64,000 bases of DNA. Source: Mytilus galloprovincialis. Lineage: Eukaryota > Mollusca > Bivalvia > Mytilida > Mytilidae. Under the pieces are notes generated by a model. The model saw nothing but the letters and a program-made list of their open reading frames with translations. It was not told where the DNA came from and ran no database searches. The stretch spans positions 3,663,001 to 3,727,000 of the forward strand of contig NC_134838.1 in assembly GCF_965363235.1 (NCBI RefSeq), written 5' to 3'. Of this stretch, positions 1,306-59,580 are shown one piece after another. Position 1 is the first letter of the stretch. Each line of letters begins with the position of its first letter. The position numbers and the translations under genes were made by a program.

Positions 1306-3379
1306 TTTCATTTGTCATTATTTTTGTGTTTTATCTTCTGTCATCAGATCTTCTGTCTTTTGAATGTAACTAGGAGTGTCAGCGTCTTAATAGTTTGAAT
1401 ATGAAACTTCCCTTTATATTTATATTTGTTGTCATAAAACACGATTATTTTGTATAAAACAACATTAATGGCATATAAATCCGTCTAGAATCAAACGCCA
1501 AGATATTTATAGTGAAAGAAGAATAAACAAAATTATTTAGATTTACGTTATTTAGACATAAATCCAAAGAAATAAAACCTAAAATCACTTATATTGAACA
1601 AAGATCCAGTTTTTTCGATACGATTTTGGACGAATAATAGTTTCATGCCAGACAAAAGTTTAGAAAAATCTAACATAGTAACTCATCAGTTGTTAAAGTT
1701 TCCTATATTGCATTATCGAATAAAATTGAAAAAAATTAGGGGATGCAGTTTGCTTTGCTTGTCAAAAAGACAAACATATGCAAAAAGACCAAAAGACGAG
1801 GTCGTTAATTACTACAGATTACAGTACGGTCTTCAACAATGAGCAAATCCAATACCGTTTTATAAGCTTTAATAGATAATAAAAGGTCATGGATGAAATA
1901 ATGTGAATCAATCCAACAAACCAACTGCATAACTTAAACTAATAGCATCAAAGGAAAAATAATTTTACTTACAGAACATACAGAAAATCTTTTCTAAATT
2001 TGAAAATGTCTGTACCAAGTCAGGAATATGACAGTTCTTGTCCATTCGTTTTTTATGTGTTTTGTTATTTGATTTTGCCATGTGATTATGGACTTTCCTA
2101 TTTGATTTTCCTCTGAGTTCAGTATTTTTGTGATTTTACTTTTCACTAGTCACCTCGTTCCTGTCTTTGAACATGCAAGTAAGGAATCATTTTATTGTAC
2201 TTGATTTGAGACAAGTCAATACGACTTTCAATAAAAACGTCTCAAAATACATTACATAGTTAGATTTATATGTCTATTTATCTGGAATGTTCCCTGATCA
2301 TGCAAAGAAATGACAGATCATATAGATTACATTGGAGCATTTAGTCTGTGAATGTATTCCCAAACTGTCATATTTTATTGTTACATCCACATTTTCTTCG
2401 ATCTATTCTGTCTGGAAAAAAGAAATATAGTGTAATTTGAAAGTCGACACCTACATTGCGTCATGCTTTATCATACTGAACACACACCAAAAAAATCTAT
2501 TTTTCGATTAACATATTTTCTCTGGAAGAAAAAATGTGACAAAAAATGAAAATCGTTTATATTTTATCAAAAATATGTTTTTGTTTGTTTAGATTCAACT
2601 ATGTTTTTTTTTAAATATAATATAAAGAATGGGACACCGTGTTATTTTCTAAGCTATAAGCTATGCAAAAATGCCTAAATGTGCATAGATAAGGCATGAA
2701 AAGTTCTTAATTGTGAATAAAAAGAATTATATGAGATATAATTTTAAATAAAAATGAGAAGATAGGTTCTGTATGCTTAAAGAAAATGAAAAGAAAAAGT
2801 GTCTTATCGACCTTGTTTTCTTGCTTTAAGAAAAAATGAAAATGTCAATCAAAAATTGAAACATTGAAACATTGAAACATTTTATTTCACTAAAGCATTC
2901 CAGTATGAAAATATTCCTATAAGACGGTTTTCCTCTTAAATGGATAAGCTGTAAAATTGATTTAAAAAAAACTAAATATTTAGTATTTATGTTAACATTT
3001 TGGATAATGATGCAATAATTTACTTATTTTTTTCTTTATACAAAAACATCCAGTACCATACATAAATTACAAATCTTTCTCAAATTTGCAGATTAAGTCA
3101 AAGAACTAGACCGATTGTGTACTGCAATTATACAATCCAATATGACGGTTTACAGTGAATCCACCTTGACTAGGATGTATTAGTAACATGATGAGTTTAT
3201 TAGTATTGAAGACAATCAAAACCAAGAAGTAAACAAAGACTGAAACATTGAAACATTTGAAGAGCTATATGATCAAAAGGATGAAAGTGAAATGATTTAA
3301 CTTTATTTATGATATTTTCAAACATTAATGTACGACTCCTAAAGTATCGAACTAAAGCCAAAATTCTGAATAAAAAACT
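1306..3379. other. Intergenic, repeat debris
   Basis: Holds a short piece of the mussel repeat R2 near 1810-1855, an R1 copy at 2005-2147 and a triple GAAACATT micro-repeat near 2857-2885. No gene seen. Confidence 0.45.
2005..2147 (+). repeat. Dispersed repeat R1
   Basis: Contains GTACCAAGTCAGGAATATGA, then GATTATGGACTTTCC and a terminal GTGATTTTACTTTT. The same order of motifs occurs at 28385-28690, 34205-34350 and 36900-37045 (plus) and at 33130-33360 and 55345-55600 (minus), so this is a family with many copies. It is probably a SINE or the 3' tail of a LINE. Confidence 0.65.
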
Positions 3380-4542: not shown

Positions 4543-4677
4543 ATGGATCCCAAAGGATTAGTCGGGAAAACATGTGGAGAATTCACAGTTGAAAAACCGA
4601 TTGGAAAGGGTTCGTTTGGACATGTGTATTTAGTGACGAGGACAAATGAAAAACCAGCATGTTCTGGCACATACAAG
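4543..4677 (+). CDS. NEK kinase coding exon 1
   Basis: Encodes residues 1-45: start ATG, then the glycine-rich loop GKGSFGHV. Ends AAG|GTATTG in phase 0. An AATTTCAG about 45 bp upstream of the ATG could be an acceptor of a 5'-UTR exon, so a non-coding first exon upstream is possible. Confidence 0.85.
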
Positions 4678-7600
4678 GTATTGTGCATTGTGTCGTAGAT
4701 TTAGGTTTAAATCAATGCTAATGATAGTCAACTAACAAAATGATTATTTTGTTTTAATAGAATCGATGAATTTATGTTAAAAAGTATAGCTTTTGGTTGT
4801 GTAATTTGATTGATTAAGTCATTACATCTCTCTAAAAGTTTAACCCTCTTAACCTTGAACGATGTCAGATACCTTTGTGATAACTTGATCACAACTTGTA
4901 GTCTTTGCATATAATGATTATAATACAAATTCGAAATTCGTGAATGATCTATTGATAAAAATGCACATACAACGGTTCGGAAGGGAAATATACAAACTGA
5001 CAACAATTCTAATAGTAATGAGTGAAGTAGATTTACTGTTTCATTCGTTTAGTTTTAAAATGCAATTAGTATAATAGAATGCTAAAACATTGATTACTTC
5101 CTCTTGGTTCGCGTTCAAGTATTTACCAATTTAAACAATTTAAATGTATAATTGTTTAAACCAATCGGAGTTAAACAAATTATTTTTATCCCTGCTTTTG
5201 TAATTCAAACGTTAAAGAGACACAAAAGATTTTTTGATTTGAGAGACTAACCAGAATGTTTATTTGAACTTTGCACTTGAACAAAACAAAAAGTATTTGA
5301 AAATTTTATTCAAGTCAAGAAAACAATGCTTAGTTTACGAGCGTACTAAAAATATGAAAAATTTATAAATCGCGCTTTAAAGTGCATTTGATTTCGTTAT
5401 GGTAGTCAAATAATGTAAAGATAGATCTCGAAAAGTTTTAATTTACAGCACACAATTATAAAGAGAATTTGAAAAAAATTACAAACATTTGCCAATATAT
5501 TTATCAAATGTTATTAAAGTAAAATATTTTCTAGAATAATATGAAGTTTCAAAAAGGGAAAGCATACCAATCGATTGTCCTTACGTAACAGTATATAGAT
5601 CTTTAAGTAAATAACACATAACCTAATTATTCATCCTCCATGTCTAACAGTGTTTTTATTTTGAATCGCTTTGTTATGTTCTTGCTTTATATTCATTTCA
5701 AAATTTATATATCAGCCAACTCCATTCGCCATGAAGATGGTCCATACAGCAGGTACAAATATTAGAGAACAAACATTGTTAGAGAGAGAAATACAACTTC
5801 TTAGAGATTTAAAGAAATATGATCATAAAAATATTGTGAAATATGTTGATTTCTTCCACTACAAGAACTTTCCGTGTATTATAATGGAGTATTGTGAACG
5901 TGGAACACTATATGAATTCATTCGGGACCAAAAGAATAAAGCAGTACAAGAAGACAAGTTTGTTCATATTCTTACTCAAATAGCTGCTGGATTGGAAGTA
6001 GGTATCCGCATTAAGCTAGTCTTTGTTTTTTACATTCAAACAACAAATAAGATACAAAAACATCAACGAAAAAACACTTCATATAGACACTACATAGTTC
6101 TGAAAGAAGAAGGCGAACGAAAAAATGGTCAAACAAACAGATACGACGGACACTATAGACAAGGACTATCAACTTCTTGTAATTACTATGTATATCAACT
6201 CTTATAAAGCTTTATCTGTGGATGTATATATTTTCCATATCGGTTGTGTTTATTTTGTTCAAAAACATTTCTACACTTGATGCAATCTTAAATTTGATGT
6301 CTTGTACAAACACAGTCTCTGTTATTTAAAACCTGAAATTTGTTGACCTATATAAATGTATTTTGGTTATTGTTCATTGAAGGTTTGCTTTCCTATTGGT
6401 GTTAACCCACACTTCCTTCTAATCGTGTTCTAAACAATTTTTTTATCTAAAAAAATAACCTAATCTTTGAAAATATAAATGATATATAGGATACTTCAAA
6501 GGTACCTAGCTAAAGAAACTCTCCCCCTTTGGTAATGTAAATCAATAAACAGCTTCAGACATTCCGAGTATTTAAAAAAGATAGAAACTATTTCAAAAAT
6601 ATTTTGGAGTTTAGTATGGCGTTCATTATCACTGAACTAGTATATATATGTGTTTGGGGGCCAGCTGAAGGACGCCTCCGGGTGCACAAATTTCTCGCTG
6701 CATTGAAGACCTGATGGTGAACTTCTGCTGTTGTTTGTTCTATGACACATTCCCCATTTCTTTTCTCAATTTTATTTGCATTTTGTAACACATATCACAT
6801 TCTATTTCTATTTACAGTTCTTGCATGGTAAACATGTTCTCCATAGAGATGTCAAAAGTAAAAATATATTTATAAGTGGACACCTTGATATCAAAATTGC
6901 AGACTTTGGAGTTGCAAGGTAACAATTGTCATATGTTTAGATAGAATTATAATTTACAAATCATAACAAGAAATACAAATAGAGTATCACTCTATTACCG
7001 CTTCTCCTCATTTGATGATTTAATTATCACTCTATTACCGCTTCTCCTCATTTTATGATTTCATTGACAGATAGAGTATCACTCTATTACCGCTTCTCCT
7101 CATTTATACCACACAGTTTCTCCATGAAGGTATACTATAAATAACTAAGTTGTGACATAGTTAAGGACTCATTGATTACCGTCTGTAGGTTACAACTGGT
7201 ATACACTTGTAATTGACCTTAATGACCTGTACCAAGTCTGTAATTAAGTGGCTGGTGGTGCTTGCCTGACTGAAACGAATACATTTCAACAGAGAAAAAC
7301 TGACAAATATAAAAGATATATAAATTTATTACAAAAAATAAAATTATATAGGTATTGCCCTTGGGAAATCATCTCAGCTAATTTTGAAAATATTTTTGCT
7401 AATTATGAAAATATTTTCCCGTCGAATTCCCTGAATCCTGATCTGTTGTAAAGCGTAGTTTGCGCGAACTATTGATGCTTGCGAAACAGTGGTTGACAGG
7501 AAATTCGACATGACTTGTCCTATCAACTGTAGTATAACTAATGAAATGTGAGTTGTAAGTTGATAGAACTTGGGGGATCAAAAATTGTCATTTAAAAGAC

Positions 7601-10600
7601 TGACCAGTGATAAAAAATGCAATGAATGGCCATTGCTCAGATTATATGAAAAATTATAAAAAAAATATATATGAGCTGAGAAATCCCCCAAGTGGTAAGA
7701 TTTTAAGTGAGGTGGAATTCAAAAGGGGGTATAAAGGGAGCCTTCAAGTCGCATGTGCTGAAAAAGTATTAGAGAGAGAGAGAGAGAGAGAAACAAAATG
7801 AATATATACAAATATGATGCACAAAACATAACTGTAAAGTTTGAATGTATCTAGAAAAATAAAACAGCAACTCGTCACATGGCTGAATATTAAGAAAATT
7901 ATAAGGTTCACATGTGTTTCTTTTCACATTCCAAGCAGGCTCTAAATTGAAATACGCGTTTTTTGGCAAAAAAACTCAATGACACAAGTTCTGTAAACAC
8001 AGTGAAATATAAATCCAACATGTATCAGGTGAAAACAGCAACTCTTCGAACGGCTGAATATTCTATGAAATCGGTAAATTCGAATTCAAATAATTGTCAC
8101 TATATAGATAAGACTTAAAGTTAAAATACATTGTTTCTTCTGCTAAACGATAATGTACAAATATAAGTCCAAGTGTATCGCAAGACAAACAGCAACTCTT
8201 CGTACGGCTGAATACTTCGTAACAAGTATAGTAATTCGCATAAAAGTTCTGTAATGGTCAACAAGTTCACATTAAAGTTCATTGTCCTTGGTAATCCATT
8301 CAAGTTCGATAATGTCCACATATCAAATATCACTCAGTTATTTTTAGACAATGTCAAAGACTTCTGTGCTTTTCGAATAGTGTCATTGGAAATACGAATA
8401 TAACGACAATAACTGTCTGATGTCCACCGACCAATTGTTTTGATAAGATGATCTTGAATATTAACGGATCCTGCCGATGTACTGGCACCAATTCTAAAGG
8501 AATGACCATTGTATAAGCTTGAGTTGTACCCACAAATATCTAGTACATGTCTTAGACTTCTGATGAAAAAGTCCCGGTCTAAAGCGTTACCATTCTCTTT
8601 GACAAACAATGGATCTGAAAAACAAAAAGATGCTTCTCTACCCTTCCTGATTGCAATATACTTTTGGACAGCAGAGAAAGGACAAATGGTATGATCGGAT
8701 TTGTGAAGCTGTATACTGACACCTTTACGAAAAGGATCTGTTTTTGAGGTTTTAAGGTGTAAAATAGCATAAGAATCGAGAATCTCAACATCCGTTACAC
8801 TTAGATTTACAGTAGAATCAAAATGTTTTGAAACTGTAAATTCACCACATCTAAGAAATCCAAAAAAGGCTACTGTACAGGCCGTTTCTAACATATAATC
8901 AGTAAAGGCAGAAAAAACACCTGCTCTAAGAGAATTGCAAATTCTCCCAAGTACCTGAAAAGTAATAGGAAGACGTGGTTTTGAATTATGCTCTCTTTGT
9001 ATACGTTTGACGGCGCGCATTATCATATTGAGTCTAAGGAGTGTCGATTCATTTGTATAATCAAATGGATGGTCACAGTTACTTTGGATATAATAAAACC
9101 GAATTCCACATAAATACAATTTAATGGTTGTATGTAAAAGTCTCAAGTTTTTGTAACAATGTGCGACAAAATAAATCAAAATATCCTCAGAAATCGGAGG
9201 CATAGGTTTACCTAACCAGACAACCCCGTTATTAGCCAGAAATGCAGTATAAGCTCGATATCCAACTTTATACGTCTGAGATGTTCTAGTTGATATTACA
9301 TGTCGCCATAAATCCGATACTGTAGACTTTAATGCCACATTACTCGTGAGACTGGCGGGCACTTGTGAGGTACTTTGTCTGCTAAAGGTGCAAGTATCTT
9401 GAACCGCTCTAGCTGTAAACGAGAAAGAGAGTCACTGATATTATTCTGAACTCCAGGAACGTGTTCGGCGCGAAAACAAAAAAATATTTATGCAGGCATA
9501 CAAAGTAAGAGTTCTCATAAGTTTCATTATCAATAAACATCTGGAACGACCTTTATTAACAATATGTACGGTGGCTTCATTGTCACATCGAAATAAGATT
9601 CTTTTAGTTGTCCATGAATGACCCCATAAGATGGCTGCAACAACTATAGGATAGAGTTCTAGAAAAGCCATGGAAAATTTCTTTTCGCATGGAGAATTTA
9701 AATCATCCGGCCAAGGAGAACAAAACCATTTTCCCTTGAAATAGCTACCATAACCAATGGTAGAAGCCGCATCTGTATATAGTTCGATATCCCTAACACT
9801 AGTATAGTCAGAATCATAAAGCATATTAATGCCATTCCAGTTTACCAAAAACGAGTACCAAAAACGCAATCGGTACGACATTCATCGGTCAAATATATTT
9901 TGTCTTTGAGATCCTTGACAGTTGTTGATAAAGATATTAGGTTTGAGACAAAAGAACGACCCGGAATTATAACCCGCATAGCAAAATTTAAATGCCCTAA
10001 CAATTGTAGAAGTTCACGTTTAGTACAAGATTGTCTGTTTAAAAACTTCTTGATAAATTCACTTATGCGACTTGTTTTATCTAAAGGCAAGCGGGTCTCC
10101 ATCTTTTCCGTATCAAGTATAATACCCAAATATTCGATAACTGTACAAGGGCTTACAACTTTGTGTTTAGCCAGTGGAATATTAAGTCTTTTAAAAAGAG
10201 TAGTCATTAATGCCATAGTTCTCTCTGCGCAAGAATCAGGTTTATCTATAGTCAAGAAATCGTCTAAAAGATGAAATATATATATATAATTTTGTAGATA
10301 TTAGTAGCAATCCAACAAATCGCTCTGGATAAGTTATCGAAAATAATTGGCGAGCTTCTACAACCAAACGCTAGTCTATTAAAGAAAAGGTATTCTTTAC
10401 ACCATTTAATGCAAAATAAATGCCACTGGTCCTTTCTTATACCTAATTGTTTGAAAGCGGCCTCTATATCGAACTTTGAACAAAATGAAAAACGACCTAA
10501 TTTTCGTATAACTTTAATTGCATCATCTATTCTGACATACGTCATTGAACAATCTTCCTTACTGATCAAGTCGTTAATACTACAATTATCATCATCGTCA

Positions 10601-13600
10601 TGTGGGGCTGATAAATCCAATATAAGACGCTTTTTCCCGGAGTACTTTCCGACAGCAAGTCCCAAAGGGCTGACTCGATAATAGTTAAACGGTGGAATTT
10701 TATACGGACCTGACAAGAAACCTTTTTCACATTCTTTGTTTATAAGTTCCCGCACAGATAAAGGTTGAGAGCGAGCAGAAAAGTTATTCTTACATTCAAG
10801 TGTCGGTAAATCAGTACATTTAATCATAGTGTCAAAACCCTCGTTAATACCACTACAAAGATAATTAACAAAATTTATATCTGGATGCGTTTGCAATAAA
10901 TCACGTAACAAGTTAACATTGATAGGTGAATTTTCGATAACAGGAATTGTTACTAGTCATTTTGTATTTTCGTTGATTGTAGTCGACCCTCTAGAAGATT
11001 TGTTCCTTTGAGTATCTTTGTTGCAGTTAAAGGCGGAATGAAAAGCGAAACAAGAACTGCAAATATGAGTCAAAGAACAACCCGGTCTGGCACACCCCCT
11101 TGCCGTGTTATAGTTATTGCAGACCTCTTTCCCATCGTGCAAAACTCGTGTTCTGCCCCTCCTATCGACGCGATCGGAAGATGGTCTATTCCGCGGATAA
11201 GTACTACGTTCTACTGATTGAGAAGAAAGAGGGCAAAAATTTGTTCCGTGATCAATAGCGTAACAAAGTCTACAAACTTCTGGCCTTGCATGAGGTGCTG
11301 AAAGCGTAAGAATGTCATTGTCTTTAACTCCCCAGTCAAATTTAACTTTGAAATCGCGAAGTGCAGTTGCAGCTTTGGCAGCAAAAAGCTTATGATATTC
11401 GTAAAATTTTTCACCGTAGCTAGATTCAATTTGGAAGTAACAATCTAATTCTTCATTGCGTTGAGGAAAAACCCTACACATGATGCGTTTATATTTGCCA
11501 AAAGCGCAAACGAACTCTTTAATAGTAAGCGTTCTATGTAGCCGGATATCCTTTTTTCCTGGCAAATTAATTATTTTAAAACCACTGCTAGTAAGTAAAG
11601 TACTAGCTGCCTGAACGGATTCGTAATCTTTCATAAGTAATCAGGCTAAATTAACGTCCCTACCTTCAATAATTTGCCTTTTAAGCGCTGGTGAAATTGT
11701 ATCCAAAAAAGGAACAGATGATGACGGCACTCCGCTAATAGTAGCTGTAGATGTGTTAAGGGTGGGATTTATCCCGCAATCGCTTTCACTAGGAGAAACA
11801 CCGTACCATTTTTATAATGAAAACACATGCTCATCTGCTGTGTGCACTTGTTGAAATCTATTTCGTCTTGTATCTTGTATATTCCCGGGAAAATCCGCTG
11901 ATAAAGAAGTATTAGAATTATTCCTATTGGTGTTAGAATTCATTGAATCCCTTAATCCTATAACAACTTCGGTTAAATTTCCGATCAAAAGTGGAAGCTC
12001 ATTAGACGAATTACTGGTCACATTAGGTAAAGTTGGCGAGACTTCCTGGTCTTCATTTGACAATAGTTCAGGTTCGGAAACTGATTTGAGATTATCAAAA
12101 TAAATTTGTTGTACACTGTTTTACTTAATTTTGAAGTAATGTTTATTCCAATATTTGTCAGTTCTTTCTTGAACTTCTTAACTGTCCAAGACGAACAGTC
12201 ACTTTCTTGTCTGCTGATTTCAATTGAATCCGGAGAAAACCGACTTGTAGATTTCCTTTTTCTCCGAGAAGCCATAATGTTAAGTAATCCGTAAAAAACA
12301 TTCAAAAGTTAAAAACTAAACTTTGCATATATATTAAAAGTGTTGTATTAATTCCAGAATATTATTTTTGGTAAGACAAGAACTGCTAACGAAACTGATC
12401 AAAAGAAGAAGACAGCGTTATCTATCAAAATAATTTCAATAATGATTATTTTAACGCCTATGGTCTGACCGCTATCTGACTGCTAAGCTATAAAATTCTC
12501 GACGAGACACAGAAACAAAAACAATCACCCGAAAGTCGTTATGGATCATTAAGAGAAGAACTTCTCAAACGAGCAATAAAATGCAGCTGTCGAAACAATT
12601 ATAAACCAAATTATATGCTATATATTCAAATAATTTAACATTTGATGATTTCATTTACAGATAGAGTAACACTCTATTACCGCTTCTCCTCATTTGATAG
12701 TTTAATTGACAGATAGAGTAACACTCTAGTAATGCTTCTCCTCATTTGATGATTTAATTGACAGATAGAGTAACACTCTATTACCGCTTCTCCTCATTTG
12801 ATGATTTAATTGACAGATAGAGTAACACTATATTACCGCTTCTCCTCATTTGATGATTTAATTAGAGTAACACTCTATTACCGCTTCTCCTCATTTGATG
12901 ATTTAATTGACAGATAGTACATGATCTATTGATTTTAATTTGAAACAAATATTTGCCACTGAACATTTCAACAAAGAATAGTTAATATATATGTATTTTC
13001 TGTTAATAAATCATTTCATAAATGTAGGGAAATACCTATTGCTGATCCAGGACAGATGTCTGTTATGATTGGAAGTCCGCAGTATATGAGCCCAGAGATG
13101 TTATCACAGAAACCATACGATCATAAGGTAAACAAGTACACACCCGTGATATCGCGGGTCCGTGACTGAATTAAAGTATATAACTATGCCTAAGCCTTAT
13201 TTTAGTAATTGGTATTGTCATCTGATAAAGTCATGTCGATCATAAGATACACAGTTTTCTCTGCTTTCAAATCTTTCTGTTTGAACCCGTCGACCTGGAA
13301 CTTATCAATTATTGGAAATATTAATTATTTGGAAAACAAAAGGTCCAGGCTATCCAGGAATGGGTTATTTTTTAATCAACAGCATTGTCCTATATTAGTT
13401 ATCTTAGAAAGTCTTGCTGGTTGCTGAATAAAGCTACAATAGGGAAAAATTTGACAATGATTTAGCAGTGTCAGCCCTTTTATTATGACCCGTGTATATA
13501 GCAAAATCCTAAATACACCGTTTGGTGGTGCGCCTGTCAAATGCGGAACGTATAAATAAAGTAATAGCTAACAGGTGAATATACTATTGGTATCGGTATC

Positions 13601-16600
13601 GGATTAGACCCGGAACTTGTTAATTATTGGCAATATTAATTATGTGGAAAACAAAAGGGTCTGGAGTGGTGTAATTTTTAATCTACACCATTGTCCTATA
13701 TTAGTTATATAAAGAGTTGAATTCTTTGATTTGTCGTTTTTACCCGATGACGGCTGACAAATTGGACCTCGTAATTTTAGTATTATAGATATTATATAGA
13801 AAGCCCAATATCACTGATTAGACTTTAAGCTATTCGGTTGATTTGATTCTGGTTATGACTATTATTTGAATTTTTATAGGCTTTATACGGATAAGCTTAA
13901 ATGCGTCAGAAATACCAATAACAAAACAAACTTGAGAATAAAACACACGAAAAGAAGAAAAATCTGTATCTTTCTTGAATTCAACGTTTTTCATTATTTG
14001 ACTAGTGTAAAGGTCTAGATTGCCAAATGGCTGAAGGAAATTGTTTATAAATTTAAAATTGACTATCAGAACTGATATGTCTTCATTCACGACGTCCTTA
14101 TTGGACAAGTACAAAAATTATCACAAAAACAATCAAGTTGCAACAAATGTGCAATCGTAGACTTATAAAAGGTAATAGTCAAAGGATTTATAGAGTCATA
14201 TATTATTCATTGTGCAAAGTAGTTTAAATCAAATGATTTGTTTTAATTGAAAATTTCCATTTCCTCGCAATAATAATTCCTGCAGCACAGGTCTATAGTT
14301 TTTATCGTGCACTTTTGCTAAATGAAATATTGGTATCAAGATATGATATCAAGCTGTCCACTTATGTATACACTAAATATGTAGTTGATTATTTCTGCGG
14401 AGGTTTGGCTTTATTTGCTGCCTTCTTATTATCGACAATTAAGTTTTTTCCGCAATCTGTTTATTGTCATTTTTTTATACTTTCAATTGATTGTATGAAC
14501 TATTACTATATATAACATATTGAAGTGAAATTATTTAGTTTATTAAACCTTTAATAAATTACCAAATTTTGGAGAAATTTATTTATTCATCTGACTTTCC
14601 GGAGCACCTGAGATCACCCCCAGTTTTTGGTGGGGTTCATGTTGCTTAGTCTTTAGTTTTCTATGTTGTGTCTTCTGTACTATTATTTTTCTGTTTGTGC
14701 TTTTGTGTTTAGCCATGGCGTTCTCAGTTTATTTTCTATCTATGAATTTGACTCTCCCTCTGGTGTCTTTCGTCCCTCTTTTAGAGTATACGATAAATAT
14801 TTTAGAAATAACATATTATCGTTTCAAGGGAATAAAAAAAATTATTTTATTTACTCTTAAAAATTTACAAAAGAAGATGTGGTATGATTGCCAATGAGAC
14901 AAATCTTCACAAGCGACCAAAATGACACAGAAATTAACAACTACAAGTCACCGTACGGCCTTCAAAATGAGCGAAGCCCATACCGCATACGAGAAAACTA
15001 ACGGCCTAATTTATGTACAAAAAATGAACGAAAAACAAATATGTAACACATCAACAAACGACAACTCCTTAATTATAGGCTCCTATGGACAGGCACATAC
15101 ATACAGAATGTGGCGGGGTTAAACATGTTAAAATTTGTTTTATCATTTCAAAGTTTTGTTTTTTTGACGTTACCCTTTTTATGTCTTTTCCTACGAAAAT
15201 AATAACATTATATTTCTGTATTAATTACAGACTGATGTATGGAGTTTAGGGTGTACATGCTATGAGATGGGAACAGGGGATTATGCTTTCAAAGCTGACA
15301 GTATCACCAAGATTAAAGAATTGGTTCGCAATAATGAGGTAGGAATCATATACAGATAAATAATAACATAAATACTATTTAATTACATCAGACATTGAGG
15401 CGCCTATTTAGGTCTATACTAAATTAAGAAGTTATGTTATTACTGTCTACGAGACAACCATCCACAAAAGACTAAAGAACAAGGCAGTACAAAAGAACGG
15501 GTGACTGTGCGACTTTCATCAATGCCCAAAACATACGTTTATTTTGCTTTAAAAGAGTATTACTACTAATGTCGAACTTATAGGTAAGTACAAAAAGGAG
15601 GAATACCTTAAAACTAGACAAAATGAACCGCTTAACTATATCAACCAACGTAACGAATTGAAACAACCTGTAGTATCATTAACTTAGTACAACCATATTT
15701 CGACGGGAAAGCATGAACAAATACAAAGCCACGTCATGAAAATTACGACTAAAAATGACAATATTTGAAACATTTCGAAAAAACAAGAAATCAGATTGAA
15801 AAATGACATCATGCCCTGTTGTCTTTAAAATCAAGTATGATTGCACGGTTCTGAAGTCATTGCAAAGAAACGACATAAAAATGACCTATTGCAATCGAGC
15901 AAGATCAATATCTCTAGACTGACAAAAGTAAAAATCGTCATAACGAGCTTGACCTCCATTCTGTGATCAGCTAGACAACACATGAAAATGTGAAAAGCAA
16001 GGATTAAGAGAATCAAATATTATTGCATCGAATCATTTTCCAATCAACCATGGACCATAACTCTTGAACCACAAAAAAAAAATTGCGTATTTTCGAACTT
16101 AATCTCCATTTTTGCATTTCATAGCAGCATATTAGAATTTGAAATGCATCGGTTAATAAGTTTGAGCATAGAGTCAATAATAAGTGAAGAAAAAAAACAT
16201 TTTGACTTTCAATAACCAACGACGCGGGTATACATTATGACTTAAAAATTATTTTTTATTAGTATGAATATTTCCTAACAGTTACCTCCAATGAAAAAAA
16301 AGGCTGACTATTGTCAAAATGTTTTTTTTTTATTTGTTAACAGTTATCTCCAATAAAAAAAAAAGCTGACTATTGTCAAAATGTTGGTTTTTTATTATTT
16401 CTTAACAGTTACCTCCAATGAAAAAAAGGCTGACTATTGTCAAAATGTTTTTTTTTTATTTGTTAACAGTTATCTCCAATGAAAAAAAAGGTGACTATTG
16501 TCAAAATGTTTTTTTTTTATTATTTCTTAACAGTTACCTCCAATGAAAAAAAGGCTGACTATTGTCAAAATGTTTTTTTTTATTTGTTAACAGTTATCTC

Positions 16601-19600
16601 CAATGAAAAAAAAGGTGACTATTGTCAAAATGGTTATTTTTTTATTATTTCTTAACAGTTACCTCCAATGAAAAAAAAGCTGACTATTGTCAAAATGTTG
16701 TTTTTTTATTTCTTAACAGTTACCTCCAATGAAAAAAAAAGCTGACTATTGTCAAAATGTTTTTTTTTTATTTCTTAACAGTTACCTCAAATGAAAAAAA
16801 AGCTGACTATTGTCAAAATGGTTTTTTTTTATTATTTCTTAACAGTTACCTCCAATGAAAAAAAAGCTGACTATTGTCAAAATGTTGTTTTTTTTATTTC
16901 TTAACAGTTACCTCCAATGAAAAAAAAGCTGACTATTGTCAAAATGTTGTTTTTTTATTTTTTCTTAACAGTTACCTCCAATGAAAAAAAAAGCTGACAA
17001 TTGTCAAAATGGTTTTTTTTTTATTATTTCTTAACAGTTACCTCCAATGAAAAAAAAGCTGACTATTGTCAAAATGGTTTTTTTTTTATAATTTCTTAAC
17101 AGTTACCTCCAATAAAAAAAAAGCTGACTATTGTCAAAATGTTTTTTTTAATTATTTCTTAACAGTTACCTCCAATGAAAAAAAAGCTGACTATTGTCAA
17201 AATGGTTTTTTTTTTATTATTTCTTAACAGTTACCTCCAATGAAAAAAAAGCTGACTATTGTCAAAATGTTTTTTTTTATTATTTCTTAACAGTTACCTC
17301 CAATGAAAAAAAAGCTGACTATTGTCAAAATGTTTTTTTTTATTATTTCTTAACAGTAACCTCCAATGAAAAAAAAGCTGACTATTGTCAAAATGTTTTT
17401 TTTTTATTATTTCTTAACAGTTACCTCCAATGAAAAAAAGGCTGACTATTGTCAAAATGTTTTTTTTTATTTGTTAACAGTTATCTCCAATGAAAAAAAA
17501 GGTGACTATTGTCAAAATGGTTATTTTTTTATTATTTCTTAACAGTTACCTCCAATGAAAAAAAAGGTGACTATTGTCAAAATGGGTTTTTTTTATTATT
17601 TCTTAACAGTTACCTCCAATGAAAAAAAAGCTGACTATTGTCAAAATGTTTTTTTTTTATTATTTCTTAACAGTAACCTCCAATGAAAAAAAAGCTGACT
17701 ATTGTCAAAATGTTTTTTTTTATTATTTCTTAACAGCAACCTCCAATGAAAAAAAAGCTGACTATTGTCAAAATGTTTTTTTTTTTATTATTTCTTAACA
17801 GTTACCTCCAATGAAAAAAAAGCTGACTATTGTCAAAATGGGTTTTTTATTATTTCTTAACAGTTACATGCAATGAAAAAAAAGCTGACTATTGTCAAAA
17901 TGTTTTTTTTTATTATTTCTTAACAGTTACCTCCAATGAAAAAAAAGCTGACTATTGTCAAAATGGGTTTTTTTATTATTTCTTAACAGTTACCTCCAAT
18001 GAAAAAAAAGGTGACTATTGTCAAAATGTTTTTTTTATTATTTCTTAACAGTTACCTCCAATGAAAAAAAAGCTGACTATTGTCAAAATGGTTTTTTTTT
18101 TTATTTCCTAACAGTTACCTCCAATGAAAAAAAAGCTGACTATTGTCAAAATGTTTTTTTTTTTTATTATTTCTTAACAGTTACCTCCAATGAAAAAAAA
18201 GCTGACTATTGTCAAAATGGTTTTTTTTTATTATTTCTTAACAGTTACCTCCAATGAAAAAAAAGCTGACTATTGTCAAAATGTTTTTTTTAATTATTTC
18301 TTAACAGTTACCTCCAATGACAAAAAGCTGACTATTGTCAAAATGGTTTTTTTTTTATTATTTCTTAACAGTTACCTCCAATGAAAAAAAAGCTGACTAT
18401 TGTCAAAATGTTTTTTTTTATTATTTCTTAACAGTTACCTCCAATGAAAAAAAAGCTGACTATTGTCAAAATGTTTTTTTTATTATTTCTTAACAGTTAC
18501 CTCCAATGAAAAAAAAGCTGACTATTGTCAAAATGGGTTTTTTATTATTTCTTAACAGTTACATGCAATGAAAAAAAAGCTGACTATTGTCAAAATGTTT
18601 TTTTTTATTATTTCTTAACAGTTACCTCCAATGAAAAAAAAGCTGACTATTGTCAAAATGGGTTTTTTTTTTATTTCCTAACAGTTACCTCCAATGAAAA
18701 AAAAGCTGACTATTGTCAAAATGTTTTTTTTATTATTTCTTAACAGTTACCTCCAATGAAAAAAAAGCTGACTATTGTCAAAATGGTTTTTTTTTTTATT
18801 TCCTAACAGTTACCTCCAATGAAAAAAAAGCTGACTATTGTCAAAATGTTTTTTTTTTTTATTATTTCTTAACAGTTACCTCCAATGAAAAAAAAGCTGA
18901 CTATTGTCAAAATGGTTTTTTTTTATTATTTCTTAACAGTTACCTCCAATGAAAAAAAAGCTGACTATTGTCAAAATGTTTTTTTTAATTATTTCTTAAC
19001 AGTTACCTCCAATGACAAAAAGCTGACTATTGTCAAAATGGTTTTTTTTATTATTTCTTAACAGTTACCTCCAATGAAAAAAAAGCTGACTATTGTCAAA
19101 ATGGGTTTTTTTTATTATTTCTTAACAGTTACCTCCAATGAAAAAAAAAGCTGACTATTGTCAAAATGTTTTTTTTTATTATTTCTTAACAGTTACCTCC
19201 AATGAAAAAAAAGCTGACTATTGTCAAAATGGTTTTTTTTATTATTTCTTAACAGTTACTTCCAATGAAAAAAAAGCTGACTATTGTCAAAACGTTTTTT
19301 TTTATTATTTCTTAACAGTTACCTCCAATGAAAAAAAGCTGACTATTGTCAAAATGGGTTTTTTTTATTATTTCTTAACAGTTACCTCCAATGAAAAAAA
19401 AGGTGACTATTGTCAAAATGTTTTTTTTTATTATTTCTTAACAGTTACCTCCAATGAAAAAAAAGCTGACTATTGTCAAAATGTTTTTTTTTATTATTTC
19501 TTAACAGTAACCTCCAATGAAAAAAAAGCTGACTATTGTCAAAATGTTTTTTTTTTTATTATTTCTTAACAGTTACCTCCAATGAAAAAAAAGCTGACTA

Positions 19601-22600
19601 TTGTCAAAATGGGTTTTTTATTATTTCTTAACAGTTACCTCCAATGAAAAAAAAGCTGACTATTGTCAAAATGGGTTTTTTTATTATTTCTTAACAGTTA
19701 CCTCCAATGAAAAAAAAGCTGACTATTGTCAAAATGGGTTTTTTATTATTTCTTAACAGTTACCTCCAATGAAAAAAAAGGTGACTATTGTCAAAATGTT
19801 TTTTTTATTATTTCTTAACAGTTACCTCCAATGAAAAAAAAGGTGACTATTGTCAAAATGTTTTTTTTATTATTTCTTAACAGTTACCTCCAATGAAAAA
19901 AAGCTGACTATTGTCAAAATGTTTTTTTTTTTTATTTCCTAACAGTTACCTCCAATGAAAAAAAAGCTGACTATTGTCAAAATGTTTTTTTTTTTATTAT
20001 TTCTTAACAGTTACCTCCAATGAAAAAAAAGCTGACTATTGTCAAAATGTTTTTTTTATTATTTCTTAACAGTTACCTCCAATTAAAAAAAAGCTGACTA
20101 TTGTCAAAATGTTTTTTTTATTATTTCTTAACAGTTACCTCCAATGAAAAAAAAGCTGACTATTGTCAAAATGGTTTTTTTTATTATTTCTTAACAGTTA
20201 CCTCCAATGAAAAAAAAAGCTGACTATTGTCAAAATGTTGTTTTTTTTATTTCTTAACAGTTACCTCCAATGAAAAAAAAGGTGACTATTGTCAAAATGT
20301 TTTTTTTTTATTATTTCTTAACAGTTACCTCCAATGAAAAAAAAGCTGACTATTGTCAAAATGTTTTTTTTTATTATTTCTTAACAGTTACCTCCAATGA
20401 AAAAAAAGCTGACTATTGTGAAAATGTTTTTTTTTTTTTATTATTTCTTAACAGTTATCTCCAATGAAAAAAAAGCTGACTATTGTCAAAATGGTTTTTT
20501 TTATTATTTCTTAACAGTTACCTCCAATGAAAAAAAAGCTGACTATTGTCAAAATGTTGTTTTTTTATTTGTTAACAGTTACCTCAAATGAAAAAAAAGC
20601 TGACTATTGTCAAAATGGTTTTTTTTTTATTATTTCTTAACAGTTACCTCCAATGAAAAAAAAGGTGACTATTGTCAAAATGTTTTTTTTTTTTATTTCT
20701 TAACAGTTACCTCCAATGAAAAAAAAGCTGACTATTGTCAAAATGTTGTTTTTTTATTTCTTAACAGTTATCTCCAATGAAAAAGGCTGACTATTGTCAA
20801 AATGGGTTTTCTTTTATTTCTAAACAGTTACCTCCAATGAAGAAAAAAAGCTGACTATTGTCAAAATGTTTTTTTTTTATTTCCTAACAGTTACCTATAA
20901 TGAAAAAAAAGCTGACTATTGTGAAAATGTGTTTTTTTTTTATTTCCTAACAGTTACCTCCAATGAAAAAAAAGCTGACTATTGTCAAAATGTTTTTTTT
21001 TTATTATTTCTTAACAGTTACCTCCAATGAAAAAAAAGCTGACTATTGTCAAAATGTTTTTTTTTATTATTTCTTAACAGTTACCTCCAATTAAAAAAAA
21101 GCTGACTATTGTCAAAATGTTTTTTTTATTATTTCTTAACAGTTACCTCCAATGAAAAAAAAAGCTGACTATTGTCAAAATGGTTTTTTTTATTATTTCT
21201 TAACAGTTACCTCCAATGAAAAAAAAAGCTGACTATTGTCAAAATGTTGTTTTTTTTATTTCTTAACAGTTACCTCCAATGAAAAAAAAGGTGACTATTG
21301 TCAAAATGTTTTTTTTTTATTATTTCTTAACAGTTACCTCCAATGAAAAAAAAGCTGACTATTGTCAAAATGTTTTTTTTTTTATTATTTCTTAACAGTT
21401 ATCTCCAATGAAAAAAAAGCTGACTATTGTCAAAATGTTGTTTTTTTTATTATTTCTTAACAGTTACCTCCAATGAAAAAAAAGCTGACTATTGTCAAAA
21501 TGTTGTTTTTTTATTTGTTAACAGTTACCTCCAATGAAAAAAAAGCTGACTATTGTCAAAATGGTTTTTTTTTATTATTTCTTAACAGTTACCTCCAATG
21601 AAAAAAAAGGTGACTATTGTCAAAATGTTTTTTTTTTTTTTTTTATTTCTTAACAGTTACCTCCAATGAAAAAAAAGCTGACTATTGTCAAAATGTTGTT
21701 TTTTTATTTCTTAACAGTTATCTCCAATGAAAAAGGCTGACTATTGTCAAAATGGGTTTTCTTTTATTTCTAAACAGTTACCTCCAATGAAGAAAAAAAG
21801 CTGACTATTGTCAAAATGTTTTTTTTTATTTCCTAACAGTTACCTATAATGAAAAAAAAGCTGACTATTGTGAAAATGTGTTTTTTTTTTTTATTTCTTA
21901 ACAGTTACCTCCAATGAAAAAGGCTGACTATTGTCAAAATGTTAAAAAGTTAATAATGTGGATGCTCCAGAATGAGTCCGTAAACAGACCAACTGCCAAA
22001 CAAGTTCTAGATAATATACAAACACATAGATGTAAAACCATTGATTCGCATACGACTATGGATATCGCAAAGGCTGTAACTACAGGTAAGCTTAAAAGGC
22101 ATACATTGATATTCACATTTATCTTTTTCAATTAATGGCAAATATACCCTGATTTACAAAACAAATAAAACATAAGAAAAATGTGTAAGTACTAAAATAC
22201 AAGATGTTTTTTTTCTTTCAATTTGAATCTTTATCTTCATCTCTATAAAGATATTTGAATAATCACACAAGAGTGTATTATATTTTTTCAATTGGAGGTT
22301 TTTCGAATACAAGTTTATATTTGTTAATTTTGCAAAATATGTTTTGTTTAGAAAATTCCTTGCGATTGTCATTGACTCAATTAATTAAGCTGACATGTCT
22401 TCTAAATATACTGGTGCAAACGACACTATGCAGATATTAAACAGCGTTTGCCATATGAAGAAAACACGTTTTTATAATAAATACAAATGTACTTACATAC
22501 TTTGACAGTTTCCCCGACGAATAGAGAAGAAGAAACGACAACTCGAAAGACTAGTGTTATTGGTAAGTAGAAAAAACAATAGTACTCTAGTGAGAGCAAG

Positions 22601-25600
22601 TATTTTGTTTTGATTTATAGTGAATTGGGTTGATAGTGTAAATACATGAGATACTTGTAGCAATCGTTTCAGAGAGAAGTTAGATTATGTCTTAGAGCGC
22701 GTAATAGGCAACTACTTATTCATTCTCACAAAAGGAATATGCAATGAAATAATTTTAACAGACTTCTGCTGAAATATTAAATCTATTTTACTTTACTTCC
22801 ATCAGCCTTTTATAAACATGTGGTCATATGACTTTACCCAAAATGTGAAATTTTAAAAACGACGTGCCTAACTTACATACAAGACAGGAAAAAACACTCA
22901 TTTCATTTTTTTTTCAGACCCTCCTGACAGTGGCATGTCGAGTGGGACAGGAACGGTGGAAAACTCATGTAAGCTAACCATACTGTTGTACATCCCATTG
23001 TTTGGCCGAAAATGTATTATATATTTTTTTTACAATTTAAGTTAGCTAATATACTTACTGCTCTCAATGAAAAGTTTTTTTGTTTTTTGTTTGTTCTAAT
23101 AGTATAGATACTTTATTGAAAACTTTCACATTTGTTAGTTTGATACAGAAAGTACCGGTACCTTATCCCGGCCTCGTTAAACATTAGATTGTATATTTAG
23201 AAAAATTGTTAGTAATTGTTAGTATTCAAAATTACAAAATATATATACAGTATATTATTGTGTATCAATTATTTCAATATTGATCAATAAAAAGAGAATT
23301 TTATTTAAGAGAGAAAGTGAGAAGAGAAGAGAAATTAATAAATAAATAAAACACAAATGCAAAAGAAAAAAAAAAAGAAAAAACTAGAGAAAAAAAAATT
23401 AAATAAAAACTCCTTGAAATTTGGAATTTGGCAGCAGTATTTTTTTTCTTAAGATACAACATTAAATAAATTTTGCAAAGTTGGTTTTCCATTGTAAATA
23501 ATTCATGCAAACAAAAAACAGATATTAAAGAATGTATATGCTATTTTAGGCACAAAACAAGTACAAAAACAATAAACAACATATAACAGTATATTATATA
23601 AAAAAAATATATGTTGGTGTGGAGAAGGCTAAAAAACAAAATACACAATAACATTACATAGGGTAATGCTAAGTTGCTTAAGTGTAAATTAATCTAGTAA
23701 TGGAAGCCAGGGGTCCCAGTAGAGGTTGGCAATGTGAAGAGGCTTTGTTTTAAAAAAATATATTCTTTTCTAGTATTAGATTTTCTTTTAGATAGTTTTT
23801 CAGCCCTGTACAATTTACTTGATTTTCACAGTTTTGTTCTATAGATGAAAAAATTTGATAAGAGTATTTTTAAGTTTTTTATTTTATTATTTTCTGTTTT
23901 TTCCTAAGTTTCCGAATAAAAGTATATCCATGTTCAATGAAATAATTATTTGTTTTTGGTTATAAATCCAGTCAATGAGTCTTATCGTCAGATCTACTAT
24001 TTTATGGCATGTCCAAAATACTTTCTTAATATCAAAACATATTCTTATATTATTCGGCATAATTGGTCCTAGTGTTTTATAACAAATGTTTATGGATATA
24101 TAGTGTTTTAAAGCCTTTTTATATGATTTTATTGATGAAATGACCCCATTATAAGTAAGAAAGTTTGACTTAATTTTATAAATGTTTTCGAATTGTTGAA
24201 AAGTCATTAGTTTTCCCTCATCGTTTAATAAATCATTTATCAAAAAGATCCCTTTATCTATCCGGTCTTTTTAGAAAATAGATGTTGTTACTATTTTTAT
24301 GTTTTCTATATTCCAGAGCGAATCTGATAAAAACTCCTCTTCATTTTTTGGTATGAATTTATTTTCTAAATCTGTCCATGTTTCAATAACTTCTTCCCAA
24401 AAAATGAAAAGTTTTCTGTTCACTACCGAAAAATAAGGAAATTTATCGGTAAAATACAGAAAATGAATATAAAGATTAAACAGTGTCAATTCTTCTTTGT
24501 GAAAAATGTTCCTGTCTAAGTTTTGTTACATTCCATGTAAATAAGACAAAATTCTCCAAGCTTTCCTATCTTGACCAAACGACTGAACCATAATGTTGAC
24601 TGTATAAAACATTGAGAAATAAATCCATCACTTCCATGAATTCTAAAGTGAAACTAAATTACTCTAAGACTTGATGGTATTACTCGATTATAAGAAAAAA
24701 TCTGTCAAAGCTTACTGAAATCTAATTATGGTTTGAAAAGGGTTATTGATGTTTAATGAACTCTAATCTTAGATTGTATTTAAACGGCATCTTAAAAAAA
24801 AGGCCATACATCAGTAAAATACAAAAAAGTTAAAAGAAATCACGTATTTAAATTGTTTTCCTCAGATCCTATTTATTTAACAAGAATAAGGCCTTGCTTA
24901 AAGTTGACAAAGTTATTATTCTGTAAATTGTACAAGCAAAAAATTCAACAATCAATAAAATACGCGGGGAAAAAGAAGTTAATGCATTTTCAAATCTTTG
25001 CTGAATTTTTTGTGTCTCTAAAAAAGCATATGTCCGGAATTCGTCATTTTTCTTCGAAGGATTGACGAAGTTATTGTGTCTAAAAAAATCTTTGTCTCTC
25101 TCAAGACAAAATGTAAGCTGCTGAAAATTTTATTTTATCAGTAAAAGACTGCATTTAAAAAAAAAACAAAAAAAAAGCTTTATAAATGTCCATACAAATT
25201 TCACAAGATAATTGATAGCTAAAAGAGATATAACCCCAGTCTAAACAACAACAAAAACTATGTTCAATCTATGTGCACACAAAGAGACAATCTCTTAGTT
25301 CCTTTATTTTAAAAACGACGGTAATGCTTAAGCATTTTCATAAATGAAACTTTGTTTTGTTGTTACTGATGTTATTACTTCTACTCATTCTGAACTTGAA
25401 GTTAAGGATGTTTGCTTGTCATGTTTTGGAATTTTTGTCAGATTTTCGGAATCCTCTGGTTTTATCCATCTGAATGCCTTAAAACAATTGGCCATTGACC
25501 CCCTTTTTTCTTTTTATAAATCTTTTACATGTATAATTATAACCCATCTGTAAAAGTCTTATAAAGTCCTTGTTATTTTTTAATAGTTTTTTGAGCACTT

Positions 25601-36298: not shown

Positions 36299-56905
<20,607 letters not shown>

Positions 56906-58708: not shown

Positions 58709-58710
58709 TT

Positions 58711-58960
58711 ATACTAAATACACAAATTCTAAATCTATTATTAATGTATTGTTTACAGTTATACTAAATACACAAATTCTAAATCTATTATTAATGTATT
58801 GTTTACAGTTATACTAAATACACAAATTCTAAATCTATTATTAATGTATTGTTTACAGTTATACTAAATACACAAATTCTAAATCTATTATTAATGTATT
58901 GTTTACAGTTATACTAAATACACAAATTCTAAATCTATTATTAATGTATTGTTTACAGTT
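58711..58960. repeat. Perfect 50-bp x 5 tandem array
   Basis: Five identical 50-bp units (ATACTAAATACACAAATTCT, AAATCTATTATTAATGTATT, GTTTACAGTT). Zero divergence suggests very recent expansion. Each unit ends in TTGTTTACAG, an acceptor-like string, and the array abuts a 61-codon open frame. Confidence 0.95.
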
Positions 58961-59204
58961 AAAGTGAATAAACTTCAAATCCGAGATTGCATATCATACT
59001 CTGACTCTGGTTATATAAAATATAACAATACTAGACCGCATAATTATCTTAAAGTAAACTGGGACCTGCATATATATATAGCAGAGAGTTATGCAAGCAA
59101 ATATTTACCTGATGTGATGACTAACACTCATTAGATCAAGTTACAAGCCTGGCACCTTTGATAAGTTTATTTTGTCTAATAACAATTGTTAATATAAAAA
59201 AGAA

Positions 59205-59580
59205 GATGTGGTATTATTGCCAATGAGACAACTGTCCACAAGAGACCAAAATGACACAGACATTAACAACTATAAGACACTATTTGGGCTTCAACAATGA
59301 GCAAAGCCCATACCGCATAGTCAGCTATAAAAGGCCCCGATATAACAATGTAAAACAATTCAAACGAGAAAACAAAGGGCCTTATTTATATAAAGAAAAT
59401 GAACGAAAAACAAATATGTAACACTTATCAAACGACAACCACTGAATTACAGGCTCCTGACTTGGGACAGCCACATATATCAATAATATGGCGGGGTTAA
59501 ACATGTTAGCGGGATCCTAACCCTCCTCCTAACCTGTAACAGTGGTATAACAGTAAACATAAGAACGAACTATTAAAATC
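59205..59580 (+). repeat. Dispersed mussel repeat R2, long copy
   Basis: AGAAGATGTGGTATTATTGC, CAAAGCCCATACCGCATAGT, ATGAACGAAAAACAAATATG, TGGCGGGGTTAAACATGTTA and a 3' end with AACAGTGGTATAACAGTAAA. The longest copy here. Confidence 0.75.

What the first reader, a model, noticed from the sequence alone, without database searches (positions are those of the whole stretch)
16258..21944. About 90 tandem copies of a 3' splice site plus exon start, directly in front of the real exon
Each ~63-bp unit holds a pyrimidine tract, AACAG acceptor and the first ~13 codons of NEK exon 6, and the last unit runs into the genuine exon. The spliceosome therefore meets about 90 near-identical acceptors in series and must use the last one (or few) to make a full kinase. 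I know of NAGNAG-type tandem acceptors and of intronic minisatellites, but not of an array this long built from the exon boundary itself. It could control kinase level by splice-site competition, or be tolerated because the last site is chosen.
Basis: partly seen in the sequence, partly recalled or inferred. Interest (0 to 1): 0.88.

Follow-up and report, generated by a model that had tools for sequence, protein, structure and literature searches.

The report
Ninety-copy splice acceptor array ("mirage")
A kinase gene carries about 90 tandem copies of the junction where one of its introns meets the next exon, so the splicing machinery faces about 90 near-identical stopping points of which only the last joins the kinase reading frame; it is a very long case of the exon-boundary minisatellites called "mirages" in amphioxus, and a natural test of how splice sites are chosen.

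Summary
Confirmed. TRF reports a 63-bp unit repeated 89.9 times at 16269-21943, with 90 AACAG acceptors, first exon bases 16282 to 21905. The gene is a NEK-like kinase with a near-complete kinase domain (Pfam 1-259 of 263; best solved match NEK1). Each unit is the 3' end of intron 5 plus the first ~39 nt of exon 6. Joining exon 5 to any of the 89 upstream acceptors, the array being retained, meets a stop; only the 90th stays open. A lengthened A-run puts 79 of 89 upstream units out of the kinase frame, so most are not working copies of the first 13 codons. The exon codons also supply a branch-point-like CTGAC (recalled motif), so most units look like whole 3' splice-site cassettes.

The kind is known: amphioxus "mirages" (PMC3087553), with 3-6 units in BflGb6. 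New here are copy number and loss of frame. Best reading: a growing, near-neutral mirage, tolerated because the last site is defined together with the exon-6 donor. A length-dependent splicing brake is possible but untested; no RNA data were available.

The parts
4543..4677 (+). predicted kinase exon 1, from the first ATG in its frame, with glycine loop GKGSFGHV; donor AAG|gtattg
5716..5997 (+). predicted kinase exon 2
6818..6918 (+). predicted kinase exon 3 (HRD, DFG)
13028..13127 (+). predicted kinase exon 4 (SPE)
15231..15338 (+). predicted kinase exon 5; ends in phase 0 before the array intron (donor GAG|gtagga)
15339..16268 (+). unique part of intron 5 upstream of the array
16258..16281 (+). 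acceptor 1, still in unique-intron context; 12 of 20 pyrimidines before the AG, against 15-19 at the other 89 acceptors
16269..21943 (+). array of about 90 tandem ~63-bp units: pyrimidine tract + AACAG + first ~39 nt of exon 6
17610..19002 (+). 11-unit block duplicated in tandem (units 22-32 and 33-43), 98.3% identical
20011..21904 (+). 15-unit block duplicated in tandem (units 60-74 and 75-89), 96.7% identical; the second copy abuts exon 6
21840..21904 (+). unit 89 with the last acceptor (acceptor 90); GTG in place of GTC is predicted to open the TGAC/GTCA stem over the candidate branch point
21905..22085 (+). predicted kinase exon 6, LPPMKKADYCQNVKKL...; donor CAG|gtaagc at 22086
22509..22562 (+). 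predicted exon 7, phase 1, open frame
22918..22968 (+). predicted exon 8, phase 1, open frame

Best explanation
A 'mirage': a minisatellite born from tandem duplication of the intron 5 / exon 6 boundary of a NEK-like kinase gene and expanded to about 90 units. A copy whose A-run had lengthened by two bases probably seeded it, so most copies lost the kinase frame early; the real exon, at the downstream edge, kept A5GG and the frame. The exon start happens to contain CTGAC, a branch-point-like motif, so each duplication built what looks like a whole 3' splice-site cassette (branch-like motif, pyrimidine tract, AG), and the exon now sits behind an array-derived acceptor while the acceptor in unique-intron context lies 5.6 kb upstream. 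Most likely the array is tolerated because the last acceptor is recognised together with the strong exon-6 donor (exon definition) and the rest leaves with a 6.6-kb intron, with some loss of splicing efficiency. Shown here: anatomy, reading-frame fate, block duplications. Inferred: order of events, use of the last site, branch-point function, cost in efficiency.
For: Array and 90 acceptors. Frame: 89 of 89 upstream acceptors lead to a stop after 0-146 codons, only the last is open. 10 of 89 upstream units are in the kinase frame; the A/G run is 9 long in 72 of 89 units against 7 in the exon; 63 of 89 units have no substitution against the exon in the 29 positions compared outside that run. CTGAC in 77 and GTGAC in 12 of 89 units, the A 35-43 nt from the end of the AG and no AG between in any of the 89. 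Pyrimidines before the AG: 12 of 20 at acceptor 1, 18 at the last. Growth by block duplication: 15 units at 96.7% and 11 units at 98.3% identity. Of the 90 acceptors only 89 and 90 lie within 300 nt of the exon-6 donor, which scores highest of the 7 gene donors scored (exons 2-8, recalled matrix). [quoted passage not shown] Amphioxus mirages are reported not to interfere with regular splicing (PMC3087553, passage).
Against: No RNA data. Human alternative 3' splice sites show an overall preference for the upstream site; under exon definition this is described as significantly reduced (PMC9225289 section 9), and whether the exon here would count as exon-defined is unknown (downstream intron only 423 nt by the exon model). 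The last acceptor is not the best by sequence: 18 of 90, itself included, score at least as high by a recalled matrix, and 22 of 90, itself included, have as many pyrimidines. 12 units carry a donor-like AAG|GTGACT scoring within the range of this gene's own donors that could define array exons. Nothing tests whether CTGAC is the branch point.
Confidence: 0.72

Rival explanations
1. The array is a functional splicing brake: many occupied 3' splice sites in one intron hold U2AF and U2 without productive splicing, so array length sets how much kinase mRNA is made (intron detention or decay of mis-spliced RNA).
For: Two strong 3' splice sites on one RNA can both be occupied; such RNA spliced poorly, and a competitor RNA raised splicing several-fold (PMC5389562 section 12). 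Decoy exons in long retained introns promote retention of OGT intron 4 and other introns (PMC12017769, passages). Units carry the apparent 3' splice-site signals.
Against: No sign of selection on the array as such: the frame has drifted, and the AACAG invariance does not stand out, 35 of 63 consensus columns being invariant (counted). Mirages in amphioxus are reported not to interfere with regular splicing.
Confidence: 0.15
2. Assembly artefact: a shorter real repeat inflated by the assembler.
For: Long near-identical arrays are hard to assemble (general knowledge); an amphioxus mirage was aberrantly assembled in the draft genome (PMC3087553, supplement legend). Array length cannot be checked without reads.
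Against: 58 of 89 units are distinct, the longest exact ungapped internal repeat is 343 bp, and duplicated blocks differ by substitutions and indels; an assembler loop would be expected to give exact copies.
Confidence: 0.07
3. Exon birth in progress: the 12 units with AAG|GTGACT act as 21-nt microexons that insert L(P/S)PMKKK in frame before exon 6, giving kinase isoforms.
For: 12 of 12 such units give a 21-nt, stop-free, in-frame cassette; donor score 4.4 by a recalled matrix against 2.0-8.5 for the gene's own 7 scored donors. A mirage model of exon and intron gain is proposed in PMC3087553, and a potato gene gained an intron by a duplication across an intron-exon boundary (PMC4974935, abstract).
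Against: 21-nt exons are hard to recognise (general knowledge); the same C-to-G difference alters the branch-like CTGAC; the cassettes are near-identical, so one or few founder changes spread by duplication explain them without function.
Confidence: 0.06

Closest known systems
Amphioxus 'mirages' (BflGb6, BflGb9, Adh3, TnC; similar repeats in PGBD5)
   Same: Minisatellite-like tandem duplication across an intron-exon boundary; [quoted passage not shown] The original Adh3 paper is not held.
   Different: BflGb6 has 6 and 3 units in two haplotypes, of 150-160 bp; Adh3 units are 10-72 bp. Here about 90 units of 63 bp, most of them out of frame with the exon, in a kinase gene of an unidentified organism.
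IFI6 (6-16) minisatellite of splice donors
   Same: A tandem repeat that supplies alternative splice sites at an exon edge.
   Different: Donors, not acceptors. Only a citing passage and the reference title were seen (PMC4526556); the original (Turri 1995) is not held.
Intron gain by duplication across an intron-exon boundary (potato RdRp)
   Same: The duplicated segment crosses an intron's end and the next exon.
   Different: One tandem duplication that made a new spliced intron (PMC4974935, abstract only).
Internal tandem repeats at human exon-intron boundaries
   Same: Variable minisatellites at exon edges that can change splicing (PMC2812944, passages).
   Different: On average 30-bp units repeated 4 times, 160 bp in all.
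Decoy exons in retained introns (OGT)
   Same: Rarely used splice sites inside a long intron that bind splicing factors (PMC12017769, passages).
   Different: Single cassettes rather than an array; a regulatory effect is shown there, not here.

Membership tests
Mirage (exon-boundary minisatellite) | Tandem repeat whose unit contains an intron-exon boundary of the host gene | tested here: met
   unit = pyrimidine tract + AACAG + first ~39 nt of exon 6; 90 acceptors
Mirage (exon-boundary minisatellite) | Authentic exon lies at the array edge and completes the gene | tested here: met
   exon 6 carries the kinase match from profile position 206 to 259 of 263; exon model predicted from sequence, no RNA
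Mirage (exon-boundary minisatellite) | Concerted evolution inside the cluster with edge units left out | tested here: inconclusive
   block duplications; the exon-like GGC is kept in units 1, 3, 5, 19, 72, 87, partly near the edges
Mirage (exon-boundary minisatellite) | Length polymorphism and instability | not testable with these tools
   no reads or second haplotype
Mirage (exon-boundary minisatellite) | Regular splicing not disturbed | not testable with these tools
   no RNA data
NEK-family protein kinase | Protein kinase domain with catalytic motifs | tested here: met
   GKGSFG, AMK, HRD, DFG, SPE present; Pfam PF00069 5.8e-62, 1-259 of 263
NEK-family protein kinase | Closer to NEK than to other kinase families | tested here: inconclusive
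   NEK1 is the best of the solved structures at 1e-39, next PLK1 at 2.1e-32 (exons 2-8 given); no kinase tree was built
Decoy exon / splicing brake | Removing the decoy raises splicing of the host intron | not testable with these tools
   needs minigenes

The most novel reading that the evidence does not exclude
The array is a length-dependent splicing dial with a marked end. In nearly all upstream cassettes the branch-like TGAC is predicted to be locked in a TGAC/GTCA hairpin, while the last acceptor has one of the most open branch regions because unit 89 carries GTG in place of GTC. The masked sites bind factors unproductively, so copy number sets kinase output, and 12 cassettes can leak in-frame 7-residue microexons.
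Probability: 0.1. Interest if true: 0.82.

Novelty: new member of a known kind. Interest (0 to 1): 0.55.

Why it matters
It is a natural experiment in 3' splice-site choice: about 90 near-identical acceptors, one donor upstream, and one choice that makes the kinase. Counting junctions per unit would set proximity, transcription order and exon definition against each other in a living organism. It also shows exon-boundary minisatellites, described in amphioxus, at a far higher copy number, and suggests how such an array can build apparent complete splice sites out of coding sequence and carry an exon more than 5 kb away from what looks like its ancestral acceptor.

Tried and rejected
Selection on the array acceptors: all 90 AACAG are intact, but 35 of the 63 consensus columns are invariant (counted), so this gives no clear evidence of selection. 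Last acceptor as the strongest site: not so by T-run (7 of 90, itself included, have a run of 12 or more), pyrimidine count (22 of 90, itself included) or a recalled matrix (18 of 90, itself included). Predicted RNA openness: at the pyrimidine tract 86 of 90 sites are at least as open as the last, at the AG 48 of 90, at the branch-like motif 2 of 90 (the last included). For the branch-like motif the last ranked 2 in six and 3 in one of seven folding windows, of 89 acceptors. It is post hoc, one of six features looked at, and the acceptor ranked first in all seven (75) is its block-duplication counterpart, so I count it as weak.

Recursive splicing: the acceptor AACAG|TTACC does not regenerate a GT donor, set aside. 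Each unit as a separate tiny intron: GT sites in the region other than the 12 GTGACT score at most -1.6 and the spacing looks too short (general knowledge), set aside. DNA hairpin as driver of expansion: unit z -1.48 on one strand and -0.41 on the other, not supported. RNA hairpin per unit: z -3.0 for the consensus; 37 of 58 distinct units have z below -2, mean -2.25; possibly only a by-product of the A- and T-runs. Copies elsewhere: two exact patterns found nothing, one in viral contigs and one in genome contigs, collections of viral and of bacterial and archaeal sequence, so this says little. In the window outside the masked stretch 16201-21944 the printed part of the match list (cut at 3000 characters) had nothing better than E 0.04; that mask cut into the inverted match later seen at 16190-16206. 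Rfam: nothing at gathering threshold. The organism could not be named: no genome is held; a likeness of repeats at 14870-15110 and 59200-59500 to mussel repeats is recalled, not tested. Literature: ten searches were answered; in their listings I saw no mirage in a mollusc and none of this length, but most listed papers were not opened and the library lacks most subscription papers.
Full report
What is there. Tandem Repeats Finder reports a 63-bp unit repeated 89.9 times at 16269-21943. Split at AACAG, the region holds 90 acceptors, first exon bases 16282 to 21905, and the 89 units between them are 60-68 bp long.

The gene. Predicted exons at 4543-4677, 5716-5997, 6818-6918, 13028-13127, 15231-15338, 21905-22085, 22509-22562 and 22918-22968 join into one open frame of 337 codons without a stop. 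Exons 1-6 match the Pfam kinase domain at 5.8e-62 over profile positions 1-259 of 263; exons 1-5 alone reach position 206. Among solved structures NEK1 is the best match, 1e-39, followed by PLK1 at 2.1e-32 (exons 2-8 given). Exon 6 is therefore needed for a complete domain.

What the unit is. Each unit is a T-rich tract, AACAG, and the first ~39 nt of exon 6 (TTACCTCCAATG, an A-run, then GCTGACTATTGTCAAAATG in the commonest form). Outside the A/G run 63 of 89 units have no substitution against the exon. Inside it the exon has 7 letters (A5GG) while 72 of 89 units have 9, and 10 of 89 upstream units keep the kinase frame. Six units keep the exon-like GGC (1, 3, 5, 19, 72, 87), 12 have GGT, and the other 71 were tallied as AGC. 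I infer an early two-base lengthening of the A-run in the copy that seeded most of the array, then GG to AG, then C to G in some units.

Fate of each choice. Reading exon 5 into each acceptor and on to the exon-6 donor, all 89 upstream choices meet a stop after 0 to 146 codons; only acceptor 90 is open. This assumes that the rest of the array stays in the RNA; splicing out again through an array donor is considered under microexons.

Apparent 3' splice-site cassettes. The exon codons for K-A-D contain CTGAC, which fits the recalled branch-point consensus yTnAy. 77 of 89 units have CTGAC and 12 have GTGAC; the A lies 35-43 nt before the end of the next AG, with no AG between. Thus copying the exon start also copied a branch-like motif for the following acceptor. 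Acceptor 1, still in unique intron context, has 12 pyrimidines of 20; the last has 18 and the other 88 have 15-19. Intron 5 is 943 nt to acceptor 1 and 6566 nt to acceptor 90. That the exon now sits behind an array-derived acceptor follows from the order of the flanks; that acceptor 1 is the ancestral one is inference.

How the array grew. 58 of 89 units are distinct. Units 60-74 and 75-89 are two 15-unit blocks 96.7% identical, the second abutting exon 6; units 22-32 and 33-43 are 98.3% identical; the longest exact ungapped internal repeat is 343 bp. Diverged block duplications speak for a real, turning-over minisatellite rather than an assembler loop, but reads were not available.

How it is probably read. 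Of the 90 acceptors only 89 and 90 lie within 300 nt of the exon-6 donor, which scores highest of the seven gene donors scored with a recalled matrix (8.5 against 2.0-5.0 for the other six; exon 1's donor was not scored). [quoted passage not shown] On another duplicated substrate both sites could be occupied at once, splicing was poor, and competitor RNA raised it several-fold (section 12). Human alternative 3' splice sites show an overall preference for the upstream site, which goes against use of the last site; for exon-defined events that preference is significantly reduced, and the authors conclude that under exon definition the sites closest across the exon are favoured (PMC9225289, abstract and section 9). 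My reading is that the last acceptor is used through exon definition, probably at some cost in efficiency. No step of this was tested on RNA.

A possible mark on the last site. The consensus unit folds as an RNA hairpin (z -3.0), as do many units (37 of 58 distinct units with z below -2), and the branch-like TGAC is mostly paired (median unpaired probability 0.01). In unit 89 the partner reads GTG rather than GTC, and the branch region before acceptor 90 is open at 0.41-0.43, rank 2 in six and 3 in one of seven folding windows, of 89 acceptors. The first-ranked acceptor in all seven, 75, is its counterpart in the other 15-unit block. This came out of six features looked at, of which the other five did not single out the last site, so I treat it as a hypothesis.

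Microexons. Twelve units carry AAG|GTGACT, a donor-like site scoring 4.4, within the range of the gene's own scored donors. In all 12 the stretch from acceptor to this donor is 21 nt, in frame and stop-free, reading L(P/S)PMKKK. They could be included, or act as decoys, or do nothing.

What it is compared with what is known. [quoted passage not shown] BflGb6 duplicates the 3' end of an intron with the 5' part of exon 2, in 6 and 3 units in two haplotypes, and the authors report that their data suggest no interference with regular splicing (PMC3087553, passages). PGBD5 of lancelets has similar, imperfect repeats over splice sites (PMC3902484, passage). IFI6 is described as using repeat units as splice donors (PMC4526556, passage). 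The present array meets the structural definition and is filed as a new member of that kind, with about 15 times as many units as the longer BflGb6 haplotype.

Noticed in passing
58709-58961: Five identical 50-bp units, each ending TATTGTTTACAG (acceptor-like), followed by a 57-codon open frame without a Pfam match. Possibly a second array at an intron end; no exon was shown there.
   Followed up: partly
8334-12308, minus strand: Large open frames that look by eye like a retroelement (recombinase-like and polymerase-like pieces) inside the intron between predicted kinase exons 3 and 4; the two pieces given to Pfam (8337-9431 and 10267-10956) had no match.
   Followed up: partly
6970-7110 and 12639-12917: A similar ~52-bp repeat (core CTCTATTACCGCTTCTCCTCATTTGATGATTTAAT) occurs on both sides of that retroelement-like stretch.
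   Followed up: no
16190-16206: A 17-nt perfect reverse complement of part of the array unit (GTCAAAATGTTTTTTTT) lies 75 bp before the end of acceptor 1; 3 of 500 shuffles scored as high. It could pair with many units or bear on the array's origin.
   Followed up: partly
43379-43684, 48742-49179, about 54900, about 56905: Pieces of a nicotinamide/nicotinate phosphoribosyltransferase-like gene on the + strand: Pfam NAPRTase for the first two; the last two recognised only from recalled NAMPT motifs.
   Followed up: partly
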